From an uncultured SAR86 cluster bacterium (GTDB lineage Bacteria > Pseudomonadota > Gammaproteobacteria > Magnimaribacterales > Magnimaribacteraceae): DNA of 64,000 nt. Positions 58,852 to 64,000 of the stretch are shown here, in pieces. The first letter of the stretch is position 1. Each line of letters starts with the position of its first letter. A program made the position numbers and the translations under genes. Location: contig CACGNN010000006.1 in NCBI GenBank assembly GCA_902574355.1, forward strand, positions 1 to 64,000, given 5' to 3'. The notes under the pieces are model-generated. The model was not told the origin of the DNA and did no database searches. It saw only the letters and a list, made by a program, of their open reading frames with translations.

Positions 58852-59907
58852 TTATTTAAGACCAGAATTTATATCCTTTAATTTTTCTGAACCAGGACAT
58901 AAATCATTAAGATCCATCTCATTTAAAGGCTTGTCTGAGACGTTTAGAATTTCTTTTAAATCCTTAGCTTCTGGATCTGCATAAAGAAGACCTGTTAGAA
59001 CCTTCCCATCTCTTTGAGATTCTTGAATATTTTGTATGGCCTTTATTTTATCTGCAGGATCATAATTTTCGGAGATTTTTTCCAGAGAAAGTAACGAACC
59101 ATCATGTAAAGGAACATCAACAGTTGATCCTTTTGGATAATCAGTAAGTATTTCCTTTCCAGAAGGTACAAAGTCTGGCCTAGACAGGGCGTCATTATGT
59201 TCTCGAATGTAGTCATAACTTTTAGTAGAGGTGTTGTGATTATTAAAGGTTACACAAGGAGAAATTATGTCTAAAAAAGAGAAACCTTTATGGGATAAGG
59301 CAGCTTTTAGCAAAGGAACTAATTGCTCTTTATCTCCAGAAAAGCTTCTTGCAACAAAACTTGCACCTAATTGAATGGCCATGGAAGGTAAATCTATTGA
59401 AGGAAATAGATTATCATCGCCATATTTACTTTTCGATTCCAAATCATTTGTAGCTGAAAATTGACCTTTTGTAAGTCCATAAGTGCCATTATTTTCAACT
59501 ATATATGTCATATTAAGCTGCCTTCTAGCACAGTGAATAAATTGACCAATACCTATTGATGCGCTGTCTCCATCTCCAGAAATCCCCAAATATAATAGCT
59601 CATGATTCGCCATAGCAGCACCAGTTGCGATTGAAGGCATCCTTCCATGAACTGAGTTGAATCCATGAGATTGGTTCAAAAAGTAGGCGGGAGCTTTAGA
59701 CGAACAACCTATTCCTGATAATTTTGCGACCTTGTAAGATTCTATACTGAGTTGAAAGCAAGCCTCAACTATTGCTGAGCTTATTGAGTCATGCCCACAT
59801 CCTGCACAAAGGGTAGAGACAGCACCCTCATAATCTCTTCGTGTTAGTCCCAATTCATTTTTTTCAAGAAGTGGATGATGATTTTTTGGCTTTACTATAT
59901 AAGTCAT
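58852..59907 (-). CDS. korB: 2-oxoacid:ferredoxin oxidoreductase, beta (TPP) subunit
   Basis: Thiamine-pyrophosphate subunit of an enzyme that oxidatively decarboxylates a 2-oxoacid (probably 2-oxoglutarate or pyruvate) to acyl-CoA, or runs in reverse. TPP/Mg site GDGDSASIG (111-119) and NNGTYGLTKGQ; four cysteines C34, C37 (CAGCG), C68 (IGCSS) and C218 (SPCVTFN) fit the [4Fe-4S] site of the family. 351 residues, with a C-terminal extension from about residue 290. It follows korA by 9 bases and is the last gene of the operon. Substrate is not readable from sequence. Confidence 0.9.
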   Translation of the reverse strand: MTYIVKPKNHHPLLEKNELGLTRRDYEGAVSTLCAGCGHDSISSAIVEACFQLSIESYKVAKLSGIGCSSKAPAYFLNQSHGFNSVHGRMPSIATGAAMANHELLYLGISGDGDSASIGIGQFIHCARRQLNMTYIVENNGTYGLTKGQFSATNDLESKSKYGDDNLFPSIDLPSMAIQLGASFVARSFSGDKEQLVPLLKAALSHKGFSFLDIISPCVTFNNHNTSTKSYDYIREHNDALSRPDFVPSGKEILTDYPKGSTVDVPLHDGSLLSLEKISENYDPADKIKAIQNIQESQRDGKVLTGLLYADPEAKDLKEILNVSDKPLNEMDLNDLCPGSEKLKDINSGLK

Positions 59908-59916
59908 TTAATTTCC

Positions 59917-61734
59917 TTACGAGGCTACTAATGCCGGTTTACCGGATATGTGAGCATTTATTTTATTTGTAATATGTTCAGCGGTTATAGGTTGACCATC
60001 AAAACAAAGAATAGATACAAGTTTGTCAGGAATTATTCCACCTTCAGCCATAATTAATGTTCTCATTTGACCATCTCTATTTTGTTCAACTATAAAAAGT
60101 AGATCATGGTCTTCAATGAATTCCCAAACTTCAAGATTAAATGGGAAAGCCCTAATTCTCATTGCATCAATATTTATATTTTGTTCATCGAGAACATCAA
60201 GAGCCTCTTGCATAGAGCAATCTGTACTTCCAAAATAAATAATTCCCATCGAACTAGTATTCTTTTCTTGATTAAATACTGGACTAGGCACTAAAGAAGA
60301 GGCTGTTTGAAATTTCTTTACAAGTCTTGTTAGCATTTCAGCATTTTTAACCCCATCTTCAGTATAACCGGCATATTCATCATGTGAGGTACCTCTTGTA
60401 AAATATGCCCCTTTTTCAGGATGTGTTCCAGGATATGTTCGATAAGGTATGCCATCTCCATCAACGTCTAAATATCTTCCAAATTTCTCTATTCCATCTA
60501 AATCTTCTTTAGATAATACTTTCCCTCTATCATATTGATTATTATCGTCCCACTCGAATTCTTTTGTAGACCAATCATTCATGCCTAGGTCTAAGTCCAG
60601 AAGGACAATAACAGGCGTCTGAAGTCGATCTGCTAGATCAAAAGCTTCCACGGCAAAATCAAAACACTCCTTAGGATCTGATGGGATTAATAAAATATGT
60701 TTTGTATCTCCATGAGAAGCATATGCTGAACACAAGATATCGGACTGTTGCGTTCTGGTTGGCATACCTGTTGAGGGACCACCTCTTTGCACATTAAATA
60801 AGACAGTAGGAACTTCAGCAAAATAGGCTAATCCAATAAACTCGCTCATTAAGGAAACTCCTGGTCCGCTAGTAGCAGTAAAAGCCCTCGCTCCGTTCCA
60901 ATTTGCGCCAATAGTCATACCCATGGCAGCTAATTCATCTTCAGCTTGAATAAATGCAAATTTATTTTTTTCAGTGCCAATTTCGACCCTCATTTTTTCA
61001 CTATATTTGCTGTAAGATTCTGCAAGAGATGTGGAAGGTGTAATAGGATACCAGGCACAAACAGTGGCGCCACCATATACACAACCCAAACCGGCAGCAT
61101 CATTTCCACTAGTTAGGATTAATCCATCAGTTTTATTTGATTTGTTAACCTTGATATCACAATAATCTTTGAAGTTTTCTTCTGCATAGTTATACCCAAT
61201 GTTGAGAGCTTTTACATTAGGTTCGATGAGTTTTTCTTTGCCTTTAAATTGTTCTTCTATTAGTGAAATATATATATCTTTATCCATTTCAAGTATAGAA
61301 GCTAACAAGCCTACATACCCAAGATTTTTAAAGAGAAGTCTTTGCTTCGGATTGGTGAATTCTTGGACGCATAATTTCGTGAGCGGAATTTCTAGGATAT
61401 TTATATCTTCCCTACCAAAATCTCTTTTCCAAGAAGAATCATAGATAAGGTAACCTCCCGCTTTAAGCTCTTCTACATCCTTTTGATAAGATTGAGGATT
61501 CATTGCAACAAATAAATCTATGCCTTCTCTTCTACCAAGGTATCCCTTTTCATTGACCCTTACCTCGAACCAAGTTGGCAAGCCTTGTATATTTGACGGA
61601 AAGATATTTTTTGGACTAACAGGTATTCCAGACCTAAAGACTCCTTTAGCAAACATTTGATTAGCGCTTGCAGAGCCAGAGCCATTAACATTCGCAAATT
61701 TAATAACAAAGTCATTTACAGATTTTATCTTCAT
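59917..61734 (-). CDS. korA: 2-oxoacid:ferredoxin oxidoreductase, fused gamma-alpha subunit
   Basis: Large subunit with the gamma domain at the N-terminus (IKFANVNGSGSASANQMFAKG, residues about 12-180) joined to the alpha domain (SGNDAAGLGCVYGGATVCAWYPITPSTSLAE, then AEDELAAMGMTIGANWNGAR and ATSGPGVSLMSEF). The start is ATG 61734, which overlaps the stop of the upstream flavoprotein gene as TAATG; the frame is open 28 codons further but that part is inside the upstream gene and lacks similarity. 605 residues. It uses KorB for catalysis and probably the Fe-S flavoprotein for electron transfer. Confidence 0.9.
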   Translation of the reverse strand: MKIKSVNDFVIKFANVNGSGSASANQMFAKGVFRSGIPVSPKNIFPSNIQGLPTWFEVRVNEKGYLGRREGIDLFVAMNPQSYQKDVEELKAGGYLIYDSSWKRDFGREDINILEIPLTKLCVQEFTNPKQRLLFKNLGYVGLLASILEMDKDIYISLIEEQFKGKEKLIEPNVKALNIGYNYAEENFKDYCDIKVNKSNKTDGLILTSGNDAAGLGCVYGGATVCAWYPITPSTSLAESYSKYSEKMRVEIGTEKNKFAFIQAEDELAAMGMTIGANWNGARAFTATSGPGVSLMSEFIGLAYFAEVPTVLFNVQRGGPSTGMPTRTQQSDILCSAYASHGDTKHILLIPSDPKECFDFAVEAFDLADRLQTPVIVLLDLDLGMNDWSTKEFEWDDNNQYDRGKVLSKEDLDGIEKFGRYLDVDGDGIPYRTYPGTHPEKGAYFTRGTSHDEYAGYTEDGVKNAEMLTRLVKKFQTASSLVPSPVFNQEKNTSSMGIIYFGSTDCSMQEALDVLDEQNINIDAMRIRAFPFNLEVWEFIEDHDLLFIVEQNRDGQMRTLIMAEGGIIPDKLVSILCFDGQPITAEHITNKINAHISGKPALVAS

Positions 61735-63755
61735 TATGAATATACTTTCGCTTCTTGATAGAGGAAATTTTGCATGTCCCAAGCTCCTGTAGGACATCTC
61801 TCTGCACATAAACCACAATGCAGGCAGACATCTTCGTCTTTCACCATGACACGTGAAGTTTGCTCTAATTCCTCAGAAACCAAAATTTGCTGGTTTAAAT
61901 TAATGGCAGGGATTCTTAATTTATTTCTTAGGTTTTCTTCAGAGTCATTGTGAACAAAACTTATACAGTCTGTAGGGCAAATATCTACACATGCATCACA
62001 CTCAATACAAAGATCCTCTGAGAAGACAGTTTGAATATCGCAGTTTAAACAACGCTCTGCTTCCTCAAGAGCAGTGATTTCATCAAACCCTAACTCAACT
62101 TCCATCTTAAGATCTTTTAGAGCATTTTTTTGGTCTGCATGAGGCACTAAAAACCTTTTGGCTTGCGAAATGTCGTTATTATAAGACCATTCGTGAACTC
62201 CCATTTTCTGACTTATAAGTGTGGTTGTTGGCTCTGGTCTATCGTATAGATCTAAACTTTTACAGAATTTATCGATTGAGATTGCTGCTTGATGACCATG
62301 CGCGGCTGCCCAAATTATATTTTCTGGCCCCCATGCTGCATCTCCACCAAAGAAAATCTTCTCATTTGATGACTGAAAAGTTACTTTATCGACTATTGGC
62401 ATATCCCACTCACCGAATTCTATTCCAATATCTCTTTCAATCCACTCAAAAGCATTATCCTGTCCAATTGCAACTAATACATCATCACATTCAAGAATAA
62501 TCGGATCTTCACCTGTAGGAACAAGACTTCTTTTGCCTTCTTCATCAAATACAGCTTCTACTTTTTCAAATTCCATTCCAACCAGCTTCTCGTCTTTGAT
62601 TAAGAAGCGTTTGGGTACGTGATTATCTAGGATAGGAATTCCTTCACCGAGAGCATCCTCTATCTCCCATTCTGAAGCTTTCATTTGGTCGAAAGGACTT
62701 CTAACTGCAACCTTCACTTCTTCAGCGCCAAGTCTTATAGCCGTTCTGCAACAATCCATTGCTGTATTTCCTCCGCCCAAAACTATTACTTTTTTTCCAA
62801 CTGATTTGGTATGTTCAAAGGCTATGCTTGTAAGCCAATCTATCCCTATGTGTATATTTTTATCAGCGGCTTCTCTACCTTCGATATTTATATCTCTACC
62901 TTTAGGTGCTCCTGTTCCCACGAAGACTGCATCAAAATCTTTTTCTAAAAATTCTTTCATACTCTTTATTTCTGAATTAAATACAGTTTCGATACCCAAG
63001 TTCAAGACTTGATCAACTTCCTCATTTAGAACTTCTTCCGGAAGTCTAAAAGAGGGTATATTCGTTCTCATCAGACCCCCAGCTTGAGGATCTCTTTCGA
63101 AGAGGGTGCATTGATAACCCATCATTACTAAATCTCTTGCCACTGTTAATGAAGCAGGACCACCTCCTATAAGGCCAACTGTCTTTCCATTGCTAATTTC
63201 AGGAGTGGGTAGTAGATTCGAAATATCATCTTTATGGTCATAAGTAACTCTCTTAAGCCTACAAATTGCTACCGCTTTTTCATGAGTTCTAGTTCTCCGA
63301 CAGGCAGGTTCACAGGGTCTATCACAGGTTCTTCCGAGTATTCCAGGAAATACATTAGACTCCCAATTGAGCATATATGCTTCATTGTAGTTACCTTGAG
63401 AAATTTGTCTTATGTACTCAGGTACAGGTGTATGTGCAGGGCAGGCGTGCTGACATTCTACGACTTTATGATAGTACTGAGGATTTGCGGTATCTGTAGG
63501 AGGTACATGTTGAGTAACCGTTTGCTCAGGTACAGAGAAAAGGTTGAGACTCTCTTGGCTTTTCGCTTGATCTATTTTAGCCTTTAGTTGTTCAACTACT
63601 TGCCATCTTAATTCTTGCGCTTTGTCTAAATCGTGAGTCTGAAGTGACCTTCTCAAATCATACCCTAATTCCTCTCTCAGAGTTTTAGGTACAGCTACTT
63701 TAACCCACCAAGTATTGTACCTTTTAAACAAGTACCTTGTGTCTGCGTTACTCAT
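61734..63755 (-). CDS. DUF6538-like domain fused to GltD-type FAD/NAD(P) Fe-S oxidoreductase with 2x[4Fe-4S] tail
   Basis: A 673-residue fusion. Residues about 8-62 (YLFKRYNTWWVKVAVPKTL, then DLRRSLQTHDLDKAQELRW) look like DUF6538, the N-terminal domain of tyrosine integrases; no integrase catalytic core follows. Residues about 95-505 are a glutamate-synthase-small-subunit-like oxidoreductase: Fe-S cysteines C101, C105, C144, C148, C152; FAD loop IGGGPAS (196-202); NAD(P) loop LGGGNTA (326-332). The C-terminus has two ferredoxin clusters, C583/586/589/593 and C644/647/650/654. No Met exists between the two domains, so the fusion is in one frame. First gene of the korAB operon; it probably exchanges electrons between KorAB and NAD(P)H. 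Confidence 0.82.
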   Translation of the reverse strand: MSNADTRYLFKRYNTWWVKVAVPKTLREELGYDLRRSLQTHDLDKAQELRWQVVEQLKAKIDQAKSQESLNLFSVPEQTVTQHVPPTDTANPQYYHKVVECQHACPAHTPVPEYIRQISQGNYNEAYMLNWESNVFPGILGRTCDRPCEPACRRTRTHEKAVAICRLKRVTYDHKDDISNLLPTPEISNGKTVGLIGGGPASLTVARDLVMMGYQCTLFERDPQAGGLMRTNIPSFRLPEEVLNEEVDQVLNLGIETVFNSEIKSMKEFLEKDFDAVFVGTGAPKGRDINIEGREAADKNIHIGIDWLTSIAFEHTKSVGKKVIVLGGGNTAMDCCRTAIRLGAEEVKVAVRSPFDQMKASEWEIEDALGEGIPILDNHVPKRFLIKDEKLVGMEFEKVEAVFDEEGKRSLVPTGEDPIILECDDVLVAIGQDNAFEWIERDIGIEFGEWDMPIVDKVTFQSSNEKIFFGGDAAWGPENIIWAAAHGHQAAISIDKFCKSLDLYDRPEPTTTLISQKMGVHEWSYNNDISQAKRFLVPHADQKNALKDLKMEVELGFDEITALEEAERCLNCDIQTVFSEDLCIECDACVDICPTDCISFVHNDSEENLRNKLRIPAINLNQQILVSEELEQTSRVMVKDEDVCLHCGLCAERCPTGAWDMQNFLYQEAKVYS

Positions 63756-63794: not shown

Positions 63795-63883
63795 ATGGTA
63801 CATGTATTAGGTTTATATACCAATACTTTTTGTGAAAAATGTCTATATGTTAATGATAATCATTATCATTGATGGTACATGTA
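63795..63883. repeat. Direct repeat pair ATGGTACATGTA flanking the divergent promoter region
   Basis: The 12-mer ATGGTACATGTA occurs at 63795-63806 and again at 63872-63883, 77 bases apart, on either side of the A+T-rich centre of the intergenic region. Each contains the palindrome TACATGTA; the second extends to GGTACATGTACC (63874-63885), a perfect 12-bp palindrome. They look like operator sites for a dimeric regulator. No known regulator is assigned. Confidence 0.6.
63849..63870. promoter_or_regulatory. Fur box
   Basis: GTTAATGATAATCATTATC (63849-63867) matches the 19-base Fur consensus at 18 positions. It lies in a perfect odd-centred palindrome, AATGATAAT-C-ATTATCATT (63852-63870). It sits between the oxidoreductase operon (start 63755) and iscR (start 63951), 46 bases upstream of the iscR -35, so it can serve either direction. 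Confidence 0.88.
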
Positions 63884-63911
63884 CCTGTTTTTTTTGTTTT
63901 TTAGACACATA

Positions 63912-63936
63912 ATTCTTGACTAATTTACTCGGGAAC
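63912..63936 (+). promoter_or_regulatory. IscR type-1-like binding site
   Basis: The 25 bases at 63912-63936 agree with the published type 1 IscR motif (ATASYYGACTRWWWYAGTCRRSTAT) at 21 positions, including the GACT half and the A-TC half. It overlaps the -35 and spacer of the iscR promoter, the arrangement used by [2Fe-2S]-IscR to repress its own operon in E. coli. Confidence 0.78.
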
Positions 63937-63943
63937 ATATAAT
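63916..63943 (+). promoter_or_regulatory. iscR promoter
   Basis: TTGACT (63916-63921) and a perfect TATAAT (63938-63943) are separated by 16 bases. The GTG start of iscR lies only 8 bases after the -10, so the mRNA would be leaderless or nearly so, or the true start is downstream of this GTG; the protein similarity begins at once, favouring a very short leader. Confidence 0.72.
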
Positions 63944-63950
63944 TCCGCCC

Positions 63951-64000
63951 GTGAATTTGACTACCAAAGGCAAATACGCTGTCACAGCAGCACTTGATTT
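63951..64000 (+). CDS. iscR: Rrf2-family Fe-S regulator IscR, N-terminal fragment cut by window edge
   Basis: The GTG at 63951 opens a frame reading V-N-L-T-T-K-G-K-Y-A-V-T-A-A-L-D to the right edge, which matches the start of IscR (M-R-L-T-x-K-G-R-Y-A-V-T-A-M-L-D), the first helix of its winged-helix domain. IscR senses [2Fe-2S] supply and controls isc/suf genes. The Fe-S ligand cysteines lie beyond the window. The promoter and binding site upstream support the name. Confidence 0.85.
   Translation, partial: MNLTTKGKYAVTAALD

What the first reader, a model, noticed from the sequence alone, without database searches (positions are those of the whole stretch)
61734..63755. In-frame fusion of an integrase-type N-terminal domain (DUF6538-like) to a GltD-type Fe-S flavoprotein
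Residues about 8-62 resemble the DNA-contacting N-terminal domain of tyrosine recombinases, yet the rest is a complete NAD(P)H/FAD/Fe-S oxidoreductase with a double-cluster ferredoxin tail. There is no Met between the domains and the GltD cysteines start at residue 101, so this is one continuous protein. It could be capture of an integrase 5' end, or a redox enzyme that also binds DNA, possibly the ATGGTACATGTA repeats upstream of its own gene.
Basis: partly seen in the sequence, partly recalled or inferred. Interest (0 to 1): 0.8.

Follow-up and report, generated by a model that had tools for sequence, protein, structure and literature searches.

The report
Redox enzyme carrying an integrase DNA-reading domain
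In SAR86 ocean bacteria a domain otherwise found on phage-type integrases has been attached to several different metabolic proteins, and short DNA sites that go with it lie at those genes' own promoters, suggesting enzymes that control their own genes.

Summary
Window 61734-63755(-) is one 673-aa protein: DUF6538 (residues 8-65, E 1.4e-9) fused to a GltD-type 4Fe-4S flavoprotein, first gene of a 2-oxoacid:ferredoxin oxidoreductase (Kor) operon, divergent from iscR-iscS. The domain sits on this enzyme in 25 of 35 genomes of the window's SAR86 family. Elsewhere in the order it sits on IscS, the Rieske protein, a small membrane protein and one true integrase; in another gammaproteobacterium on KorA. 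All carriers read have half-sites (GGTACA or GNGTACA) just upstream, mostly two or more; Kor genes of genus g20 mostly have one. The same genes without the domain rarely have any (1 of 24 Rieske, 0 of 15 isc, 6 of 74 GltD homologues). DUF6538 loci of other Pseudomonadota show GGTACA upstream in 13 of 42 (0.43 expected), some as tandem repeats 12-13 bp apart. Best reading: DUF6538 is a GGTACA-reading arm-binding domain, co-opted as a portable autoregulator. Binding, repression and the sensed signal are inferred, not shown; structural comparison was weak.

The parts
61734..63755 (-). DUF6538 + GltD-type Fe-S flavoprotein, 673 aa, first gene of the Kor operon
63561..63734 (-). DUF6538 domain, residues 8-65; predicted strand-strand-helix-strand-long helix
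63874..63885 (.). perfect palindrome GGTACATGTACC = two abutting GGTACA half-sites in the divergent promoter region
63797..63802 (+). further GGTACA half-site in the promoter region (inside GGTACATGTATT 63797-63808)
63688..63721 (.). intragenic inverted pair of GGTACA half-sites within the domain's coding sequence
63421..63534 (+). three further intragenic GGTACA half-sites (63421, 63502, 63529)
59917..61734 (-). KorA-like 2-oxoacid:ferredoxin oxidoreductase (POR + POR_N), overlapping the fusion gene by one base (TAATG)
58852..59907 (-). KorB-like subunit (TPP_enzyme_C + PFO_beta_C)
63951..64000 (+). start of divergent iscR (Rrf2 family), continuing beyond the window to G000:C6:64400, then iscS, iscU, iscA-like, fdx

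Best explanation
The N-terminal domain is the arm-type DNA-binding domain of DUF6538 tyrosine recombinases, grafted onto the first enzyme of the Kor operon. It most likely binds GGTACA half-sites in the promoter region shared with isc, and in the first codons, so that the enzyme regulates its own operon, most probably by repression, as integrases with arm sites in their promoters do. A poorly conserved linker (about residues 66-85) tethers it to the Fe-S flavoprotein, so the amount, redox state or cluster state of the enzyme could be read out at the promoter. Shown: the fusion, its conservation, and the association of domain and site. Inferred: binding, sign of regulation, the sensed signal.
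For: Pfam match; conserved fusion. GGTACA in the 250 bp upstream: Kor f1 25 of 25 loci with at least 3 (mean 3.36, shuffles 0.10); Kor f3 16 of 16 with at least 3 (3.81 v 0.06); Kor g20 11 of 11 with at least 1 (1.27 v 0.05); IscS 12 of 12 with at least 2 (2.25 v 0.02). GNGTACA: Rieske 9 of 9 with at least 2 (2.11 v 0.07); membrane class 15 of 15 with at least 2 (2.93 v 0.07). Integrase L066: 2 GGTACA. Without the domain: Rieske 1 of 24 with one GGTACA and 0 of 24 with GNGTACA; isc 0 of 15; GltD homologues 6 of 74 with one, none with more. G004 has purC-iscR-iscS without Kor or domain, and no GGTACA in the 250 bp before iscR. KorA fusion, 61% G+C: GGTACA at -266 and -171, no other within 3 kb. 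Other DUF6538 loci: GGTACA in 13 of 42 v 0.43 expected; 7-mer direct repeats in 23 of 42 v 3.0. Intragenic sites above synonymous expectation in Kor f1 (1.72 v 0.33) and IscS (1.33 v 0.14). TGGTACANT within 16 nt of the start in 12 of 12 IscS loci. Model of the domain, mean pLDDT 85.7.
Confidence: 0.72

Rival explanations
1. GGTACA is the site of another regulator of these operons, for example IscR, and the domain has another role.
For: In the window's family IscR is divergent from the fusion gene, and 25 of 25 domain-carrying f1 genomes have an IscR match.
Against: None of the 40 f3 genomes has an IscR match, yet their Kor fusions keep 3 or more and their IscS fusions 2 or more GGTACA (36). 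G004 has IscR but no GGTACA before it. A pattern for an IscR box (recalled from memory) is a separate stretch: 19 of 25 f1 loci, 0 of 16 Kor f3, 0 of 12 IscS; the pattern did not match in G004 either. Rieske, membrane, KorA and integrase genes carry the half-site without an isc cluster beside them in the loci read.
Confidence: 0.08
2. The domain tethers the enzyme to DNA, or competes with incoming integrases at GGTACA arm sites, without controlling transcription.
For: Other DUF6538 genes share the site; each of the 120 genomes of the order with a match at E 0.001 or better has exactly one.
Against: Sites are local to the promoter and first codons of the carrier gene and form a -10-like TGGTACANT in 12 of 12 IscS loci.
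Confidence: 0.12
3. The domain is a relic of gene fusion without function.
For: DUF6538 is an integrase family and fusions can arise by chance.
Against: Found in three families of the order and on several partners, each time with the half-site; Y8, L9, A46, R50 invariant in 45 rows.
Confidence: 0.05

Closest known systems
Autoregulated integrases, e.g. IntS of prophage KplE1 (PMC2951348: abstract and found passages seen)
   Same: N-terminal arm-binding domain; arm-type sites overlap the gene's own promoter, one of them the -10 box; negative autoregulation shown there
   Different: here there is no recombinase core; the domain is on metabolic proteins and the site is GGTACA
PutA, proline-catabolic enzyme that binds promoter DNA (PMC9132996: start of abstract seen in listings; domain type recalled)
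   Same: an enzyme that itself binds promoter DNA
   Different: unrelated DNA-binding domain (recalled); one enzyme, not a domain found on several partners
MrpR, master repressor of prophage SPbeta (PMC10516654: start of abstract seen; its recombinase-like fold is recalled)
   Same: recombinase-like protein acting as repressor
   Different: a whole recombinase-like protein, not an arm domain on an enzyme
IscR (Rrf2 family)
   Same: regulator encoded at the neighbouring isc operon
   Different: different domain; no match in the 40 f3 genomes, where the DUF6538 domain remains in 36
ALOG domains (PMC3537659: start of abstract seen); plant AP2/ERF and ApiAP2 factors (recalled)
   Same: recombinase-related DNA-binding domains used as regulators
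   Different: eukaryotic; not fused to enzymes of the regulated operon

Membership tests
DUF6538 (PF20172) | profile score above the curated cut-off of 27 bits | tested here: met
   window protein 37.9; examples of other carriers: Rieske 27.9, KorA 35.6, integrase L066 37.5 above it; IscS 18.5 and membrane protein 25.4 below it
Tyrosine recombinase | catalytic Phage_integrase domain | tested here: not met
   no PF00589 in the window protein's rows (25 of 29 families shown); above cut-off in L066 and in L290, L299, L300, L316 of ten DUF6538 frames scanned
Integrase arm-binding fold | three-stranded sheet packed on a C-terminal helix | tested here: inconclusive
GltD-type Fe-S flavoprotein | Fer4_20, Pyr_redox_2 and 4Fe-4S motifs | tested here: met
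   74 of 80 kept homologues align from residue 56 or later
Kor operon | followed by POR/POR_N and TPP subunits | tested here: met
Enzyme that regulates its own operon (PutA-like mode) | sequence-specific binding at its own promoter | not testable with these tools
   comparative association only:
IscR/Rrf2 | Rrf2 domain | tested here: not met
   no Rrf2 among the rows shown for the window protein; the neighbour P0001 has it

The most novel reading that the evidence does not exclude
DUF6538 plus its GGTACA operator is a portable autoregulatory module: it moves as a unit between metabolic genes (GltD/Kor, IscS, Rieske, KorA, a membrane anchor), at most one per SAR86 genome, turns the carrier protein into the sensor-repressor of its own operon, and in one SAR86 family took over isc control after IscR was lost.
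Probability: 0.35. Interest if true: 0.92.

Novelty: new variant of a known kind. Interest (0 to 1): 0.8.

Why it matters
It gives a Pfam domain of unknown function a testable role and a concrete binding site, shows a mobile-element DNA reader recruited repeatedly by core metabolism, and proposes how streamlined SAR86 genomes, among the most abundant bacteria of the surface ocean, may regulate Fe-S and redox operons. The pairing of domain and site also predicts arm sites for DUF6538 integrases in general.

Tried and rejected
IscR as owner of the palindrome: rejected on G004 and on the f3 genomes. Second genomic copy of the palindrome as another target: one search lists 38 places in 26 of 35 f1 genomes; 27 were read: 14 at the Kor-iscR region, 11 in one acyl-CoA dehydrogenase-like coding sequence (IKVHVPI), also in genomes without the domain such as G005, G006 and G013, and 2 (L139 of G032, L144 of G012) in other long open frames. 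Of the 11 unread, 6 lie at the Kor locus by coordinates and 5 were not looked at. Inverted pairs up to 30 bp apart in G000: 4 places, two of them at this gene, two elsewhere (one the dehydrogenase, one at C2:56100 not looked at). G048's second pair lies in a seryl-tRNA-synthetase-like gene; G036 gave no pair with that pattern.

PDB sequence search: best E 0.69, no relative. Foldseek: nothing at E 0.001 (81). Rfam on the intergenic region: nothing. Viral contigs with the SAR86 integrase: no match. Papers (CC-licensed library only): DUF6538 0 hits; SAR86 + IscR 2, unrelated by title; searches: no listed title or abstract start described this; of the papers only PMC2951348 was opened.

Rows dropped or weak: a crude regex for DUF6538 failed for most class loci and was replaced by match coordinates. 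The 42 loci are from the best-scoring matches only (30 loci kept per search); contig-edge loci L325, L336, L342, L344, L295, L304, L305, L310, L314, L315 and the below-cut-off L308 were left out, as were SAR86 loci L306, L309 and the KorA locus L303. Some genomes give more than one of the 42. In one search, L202, L203, L208 and L180 gave no start and were not counted; L161 had only 53 bp; where iscR precedes iscS the 250 bp lie largely in iscR, so the isc control is weaker than its count. In one search many starts were set at an internal Met. G190's weak match was not confirmed by my profile.

Full report
What is there. The window's gene 61734-63755(-) encodes one 673-residue protein. Pfam gives DUF6538 at residues 8-65 (E 1.4e-9, 37.9 bits, cut-off 27), then Fer4_20, Pyr_redox_2 and 4Fe-4S motifs. 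It overlaps by one base a KorA-like gene, followed by a KorB-like gene. Across a 195-bp gap lies divergent iscR, starting at 63951, followed beyond the window by iscS, iscU, an iscA-like gene and fdx in the same contig.

Conservation. All 61 genomes have some match, many of them only to a GltD paralogue; fusions of the window's kind are read at 68-98% identity without stops. Named records that carry the domain are five labelled SAR86 cluster and one labelled uncultured Gammaproteobacteria; one of the SAR86 contigs (41,851 bases) has the length and position of G026:C9, a genome of the window's family. The domain is thus an addition to an ordinary enzyme.

Other carriers. A search of 203 genomes of the order found PF20172 in 120 at E 0.001 or better, one match each; 27 of the 40 best genomes have it. 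Loci that I read show five classes: GltD/Kor (families f1, f3 and genus g20 of f2), IscS (12 f3 loci), Rieske, followed by cytochrome b and c1 genes in the locus read in full, L062 (9 loci of genus g15), a protein of about 150 residues whose C-terminus looks like a membrane helix by eye (15 loci), and one true tyrosine recombinase, L066 of G092. In f1, 25 of 35 genomes have the domain; three of the ten without (G003, G011, G034) hold only pieces of the enzyme. Of 40 f3 genomes 36 have the domain; the 4 without are 60-76% complete; none has an IscR match. In the 5 of 12 IscS-type genomes covered, no Kor fusion enzyme was found. In G036 an unfused iscS is divergent from the domain-carrying Kor gene. 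A class-wide search of 369 genomes (23 with a match) added G368, with the domain on KorA.

Tree. On 61 columns the IscS domains fall inside the f3 Kor clade (97/95) and are interleaved there with Kor domains at weak support; the Rieske domains fall inside the membrane class, and the KorA domain inside the f1 Kor clade (95/86). The program warns of few columns and of long branches, Rieske among them. It suggests repeated moves between partners, not proof of them.

The site. Upstream regions printed (partly cut) share GGTACA. Counts, shuffles and controls are: every domain-carrying locus counted has the half-site or its GNGTACA form, and the same genes without the domain rarely do. f1, f3 and g20 carriers favour A(A/T)GGTACA, the Rieske and membrane carriers TATGNGTACA, in step with two sequence types of the domain, one with a three-residue insertion. 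In five f3 genomes where an unfused iscS faces a domain-carrying Kor gene, the region has 3-5 sites. Sites extend into the first codons more than synonymous choice predicts in Kor f1 and IscS, not clearly in the other classes. The perfect palindrome stands at the Kor locus of 20 of 25 domain-carrying f1 genomes, 14 read and 6 by coordinates. In the KorA case, at 61% G+C, GGTACA stands at -266 and -171 with no other copy within 3 kb.

Other DUF6538 genes. In 42 loci of other Pseudomonadota with full flanks, GGTACA is the commonest 6-mer of the 130 bp upstream (13 loci; 0.43 expected from tiled windows of the same loci), and 23 of 42 have an exact 7-mer direct repeat at spacing 10-15 against 3.0 expected; the seven GGTACA spacings are 13 (six) and 12 (one). 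Of ten such frames scanned, four have Phage_integrase above cut-off, two below it, one only an integrase SAM-like domain below its cut-off, and three short frames only DUF6538, so not every one is shown to be an integrase.

How it works, as inferred. The palindrome at 63874-63885 lies between the two divergent operons; a TTGACT-16-TATAAT match for iscR is at 63916-63943 (shifted to window coordinates; the scan as a whole found no more than shuffles). In IscS carriers a TGGTACANT stands within 16 nt of the start codon in 12 of 12 loci, like an extended -10 element, so binding should repress. The autoregulated integrase IntS has an arm-type site over its own -10 box (PMC2951348). The GltD-type enzyme and Rieske are Fe-S proteins and IscS is the sulfur donor for clusters, which hints at Fe-S or redox sensing; this is a guess.

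Standing. Fusion, and association of domain and site: strong. DNA binding by this domain: likely. Autoregulation: probable. Sensing, and replacement of IscR: open.

Noticed in passing
L059 (G041) and L060 (G035), membrane-type DUF6538 genes: The DUF6538 gene lies within a few kb of a proteorhodopsin-like gene and a formate dehydrogenase-like gene (names by eye).
   Followed up: no
f1 genomes G005, G006, G012, G013, G021: No IscS, IscR, Kor fusion or domain match was found: the isc-kor locus seems missing or replaced, in G005 in a single-contig genome.
   Followed up: partly
L031 and L035 (IscS-type loci): Where the Kor operon is gone, an aldehyde dehydrogenase-like and an acetolactate synthase-like gene stand between purC and iscS (names by eye).
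   Followed up: no
upstream of DUF6538 genes L291, L293, L307, L316, L320, L328, L329, L330, L333: Tandem repeats other than GGTACA (for example GGGCACA, GGGACACA, TGTGACACA) at 12-13 bp spacing, perhaps arm sites of DUF6538 subtypes.
   Followed up: partly
L035, L038, L046: In these f3 loci a ferredoxin and an IscA-like protein are read as one frame of 242-244 aa; they are separate in f1 (L039) and in f3 locus L031.
   Followed up: no
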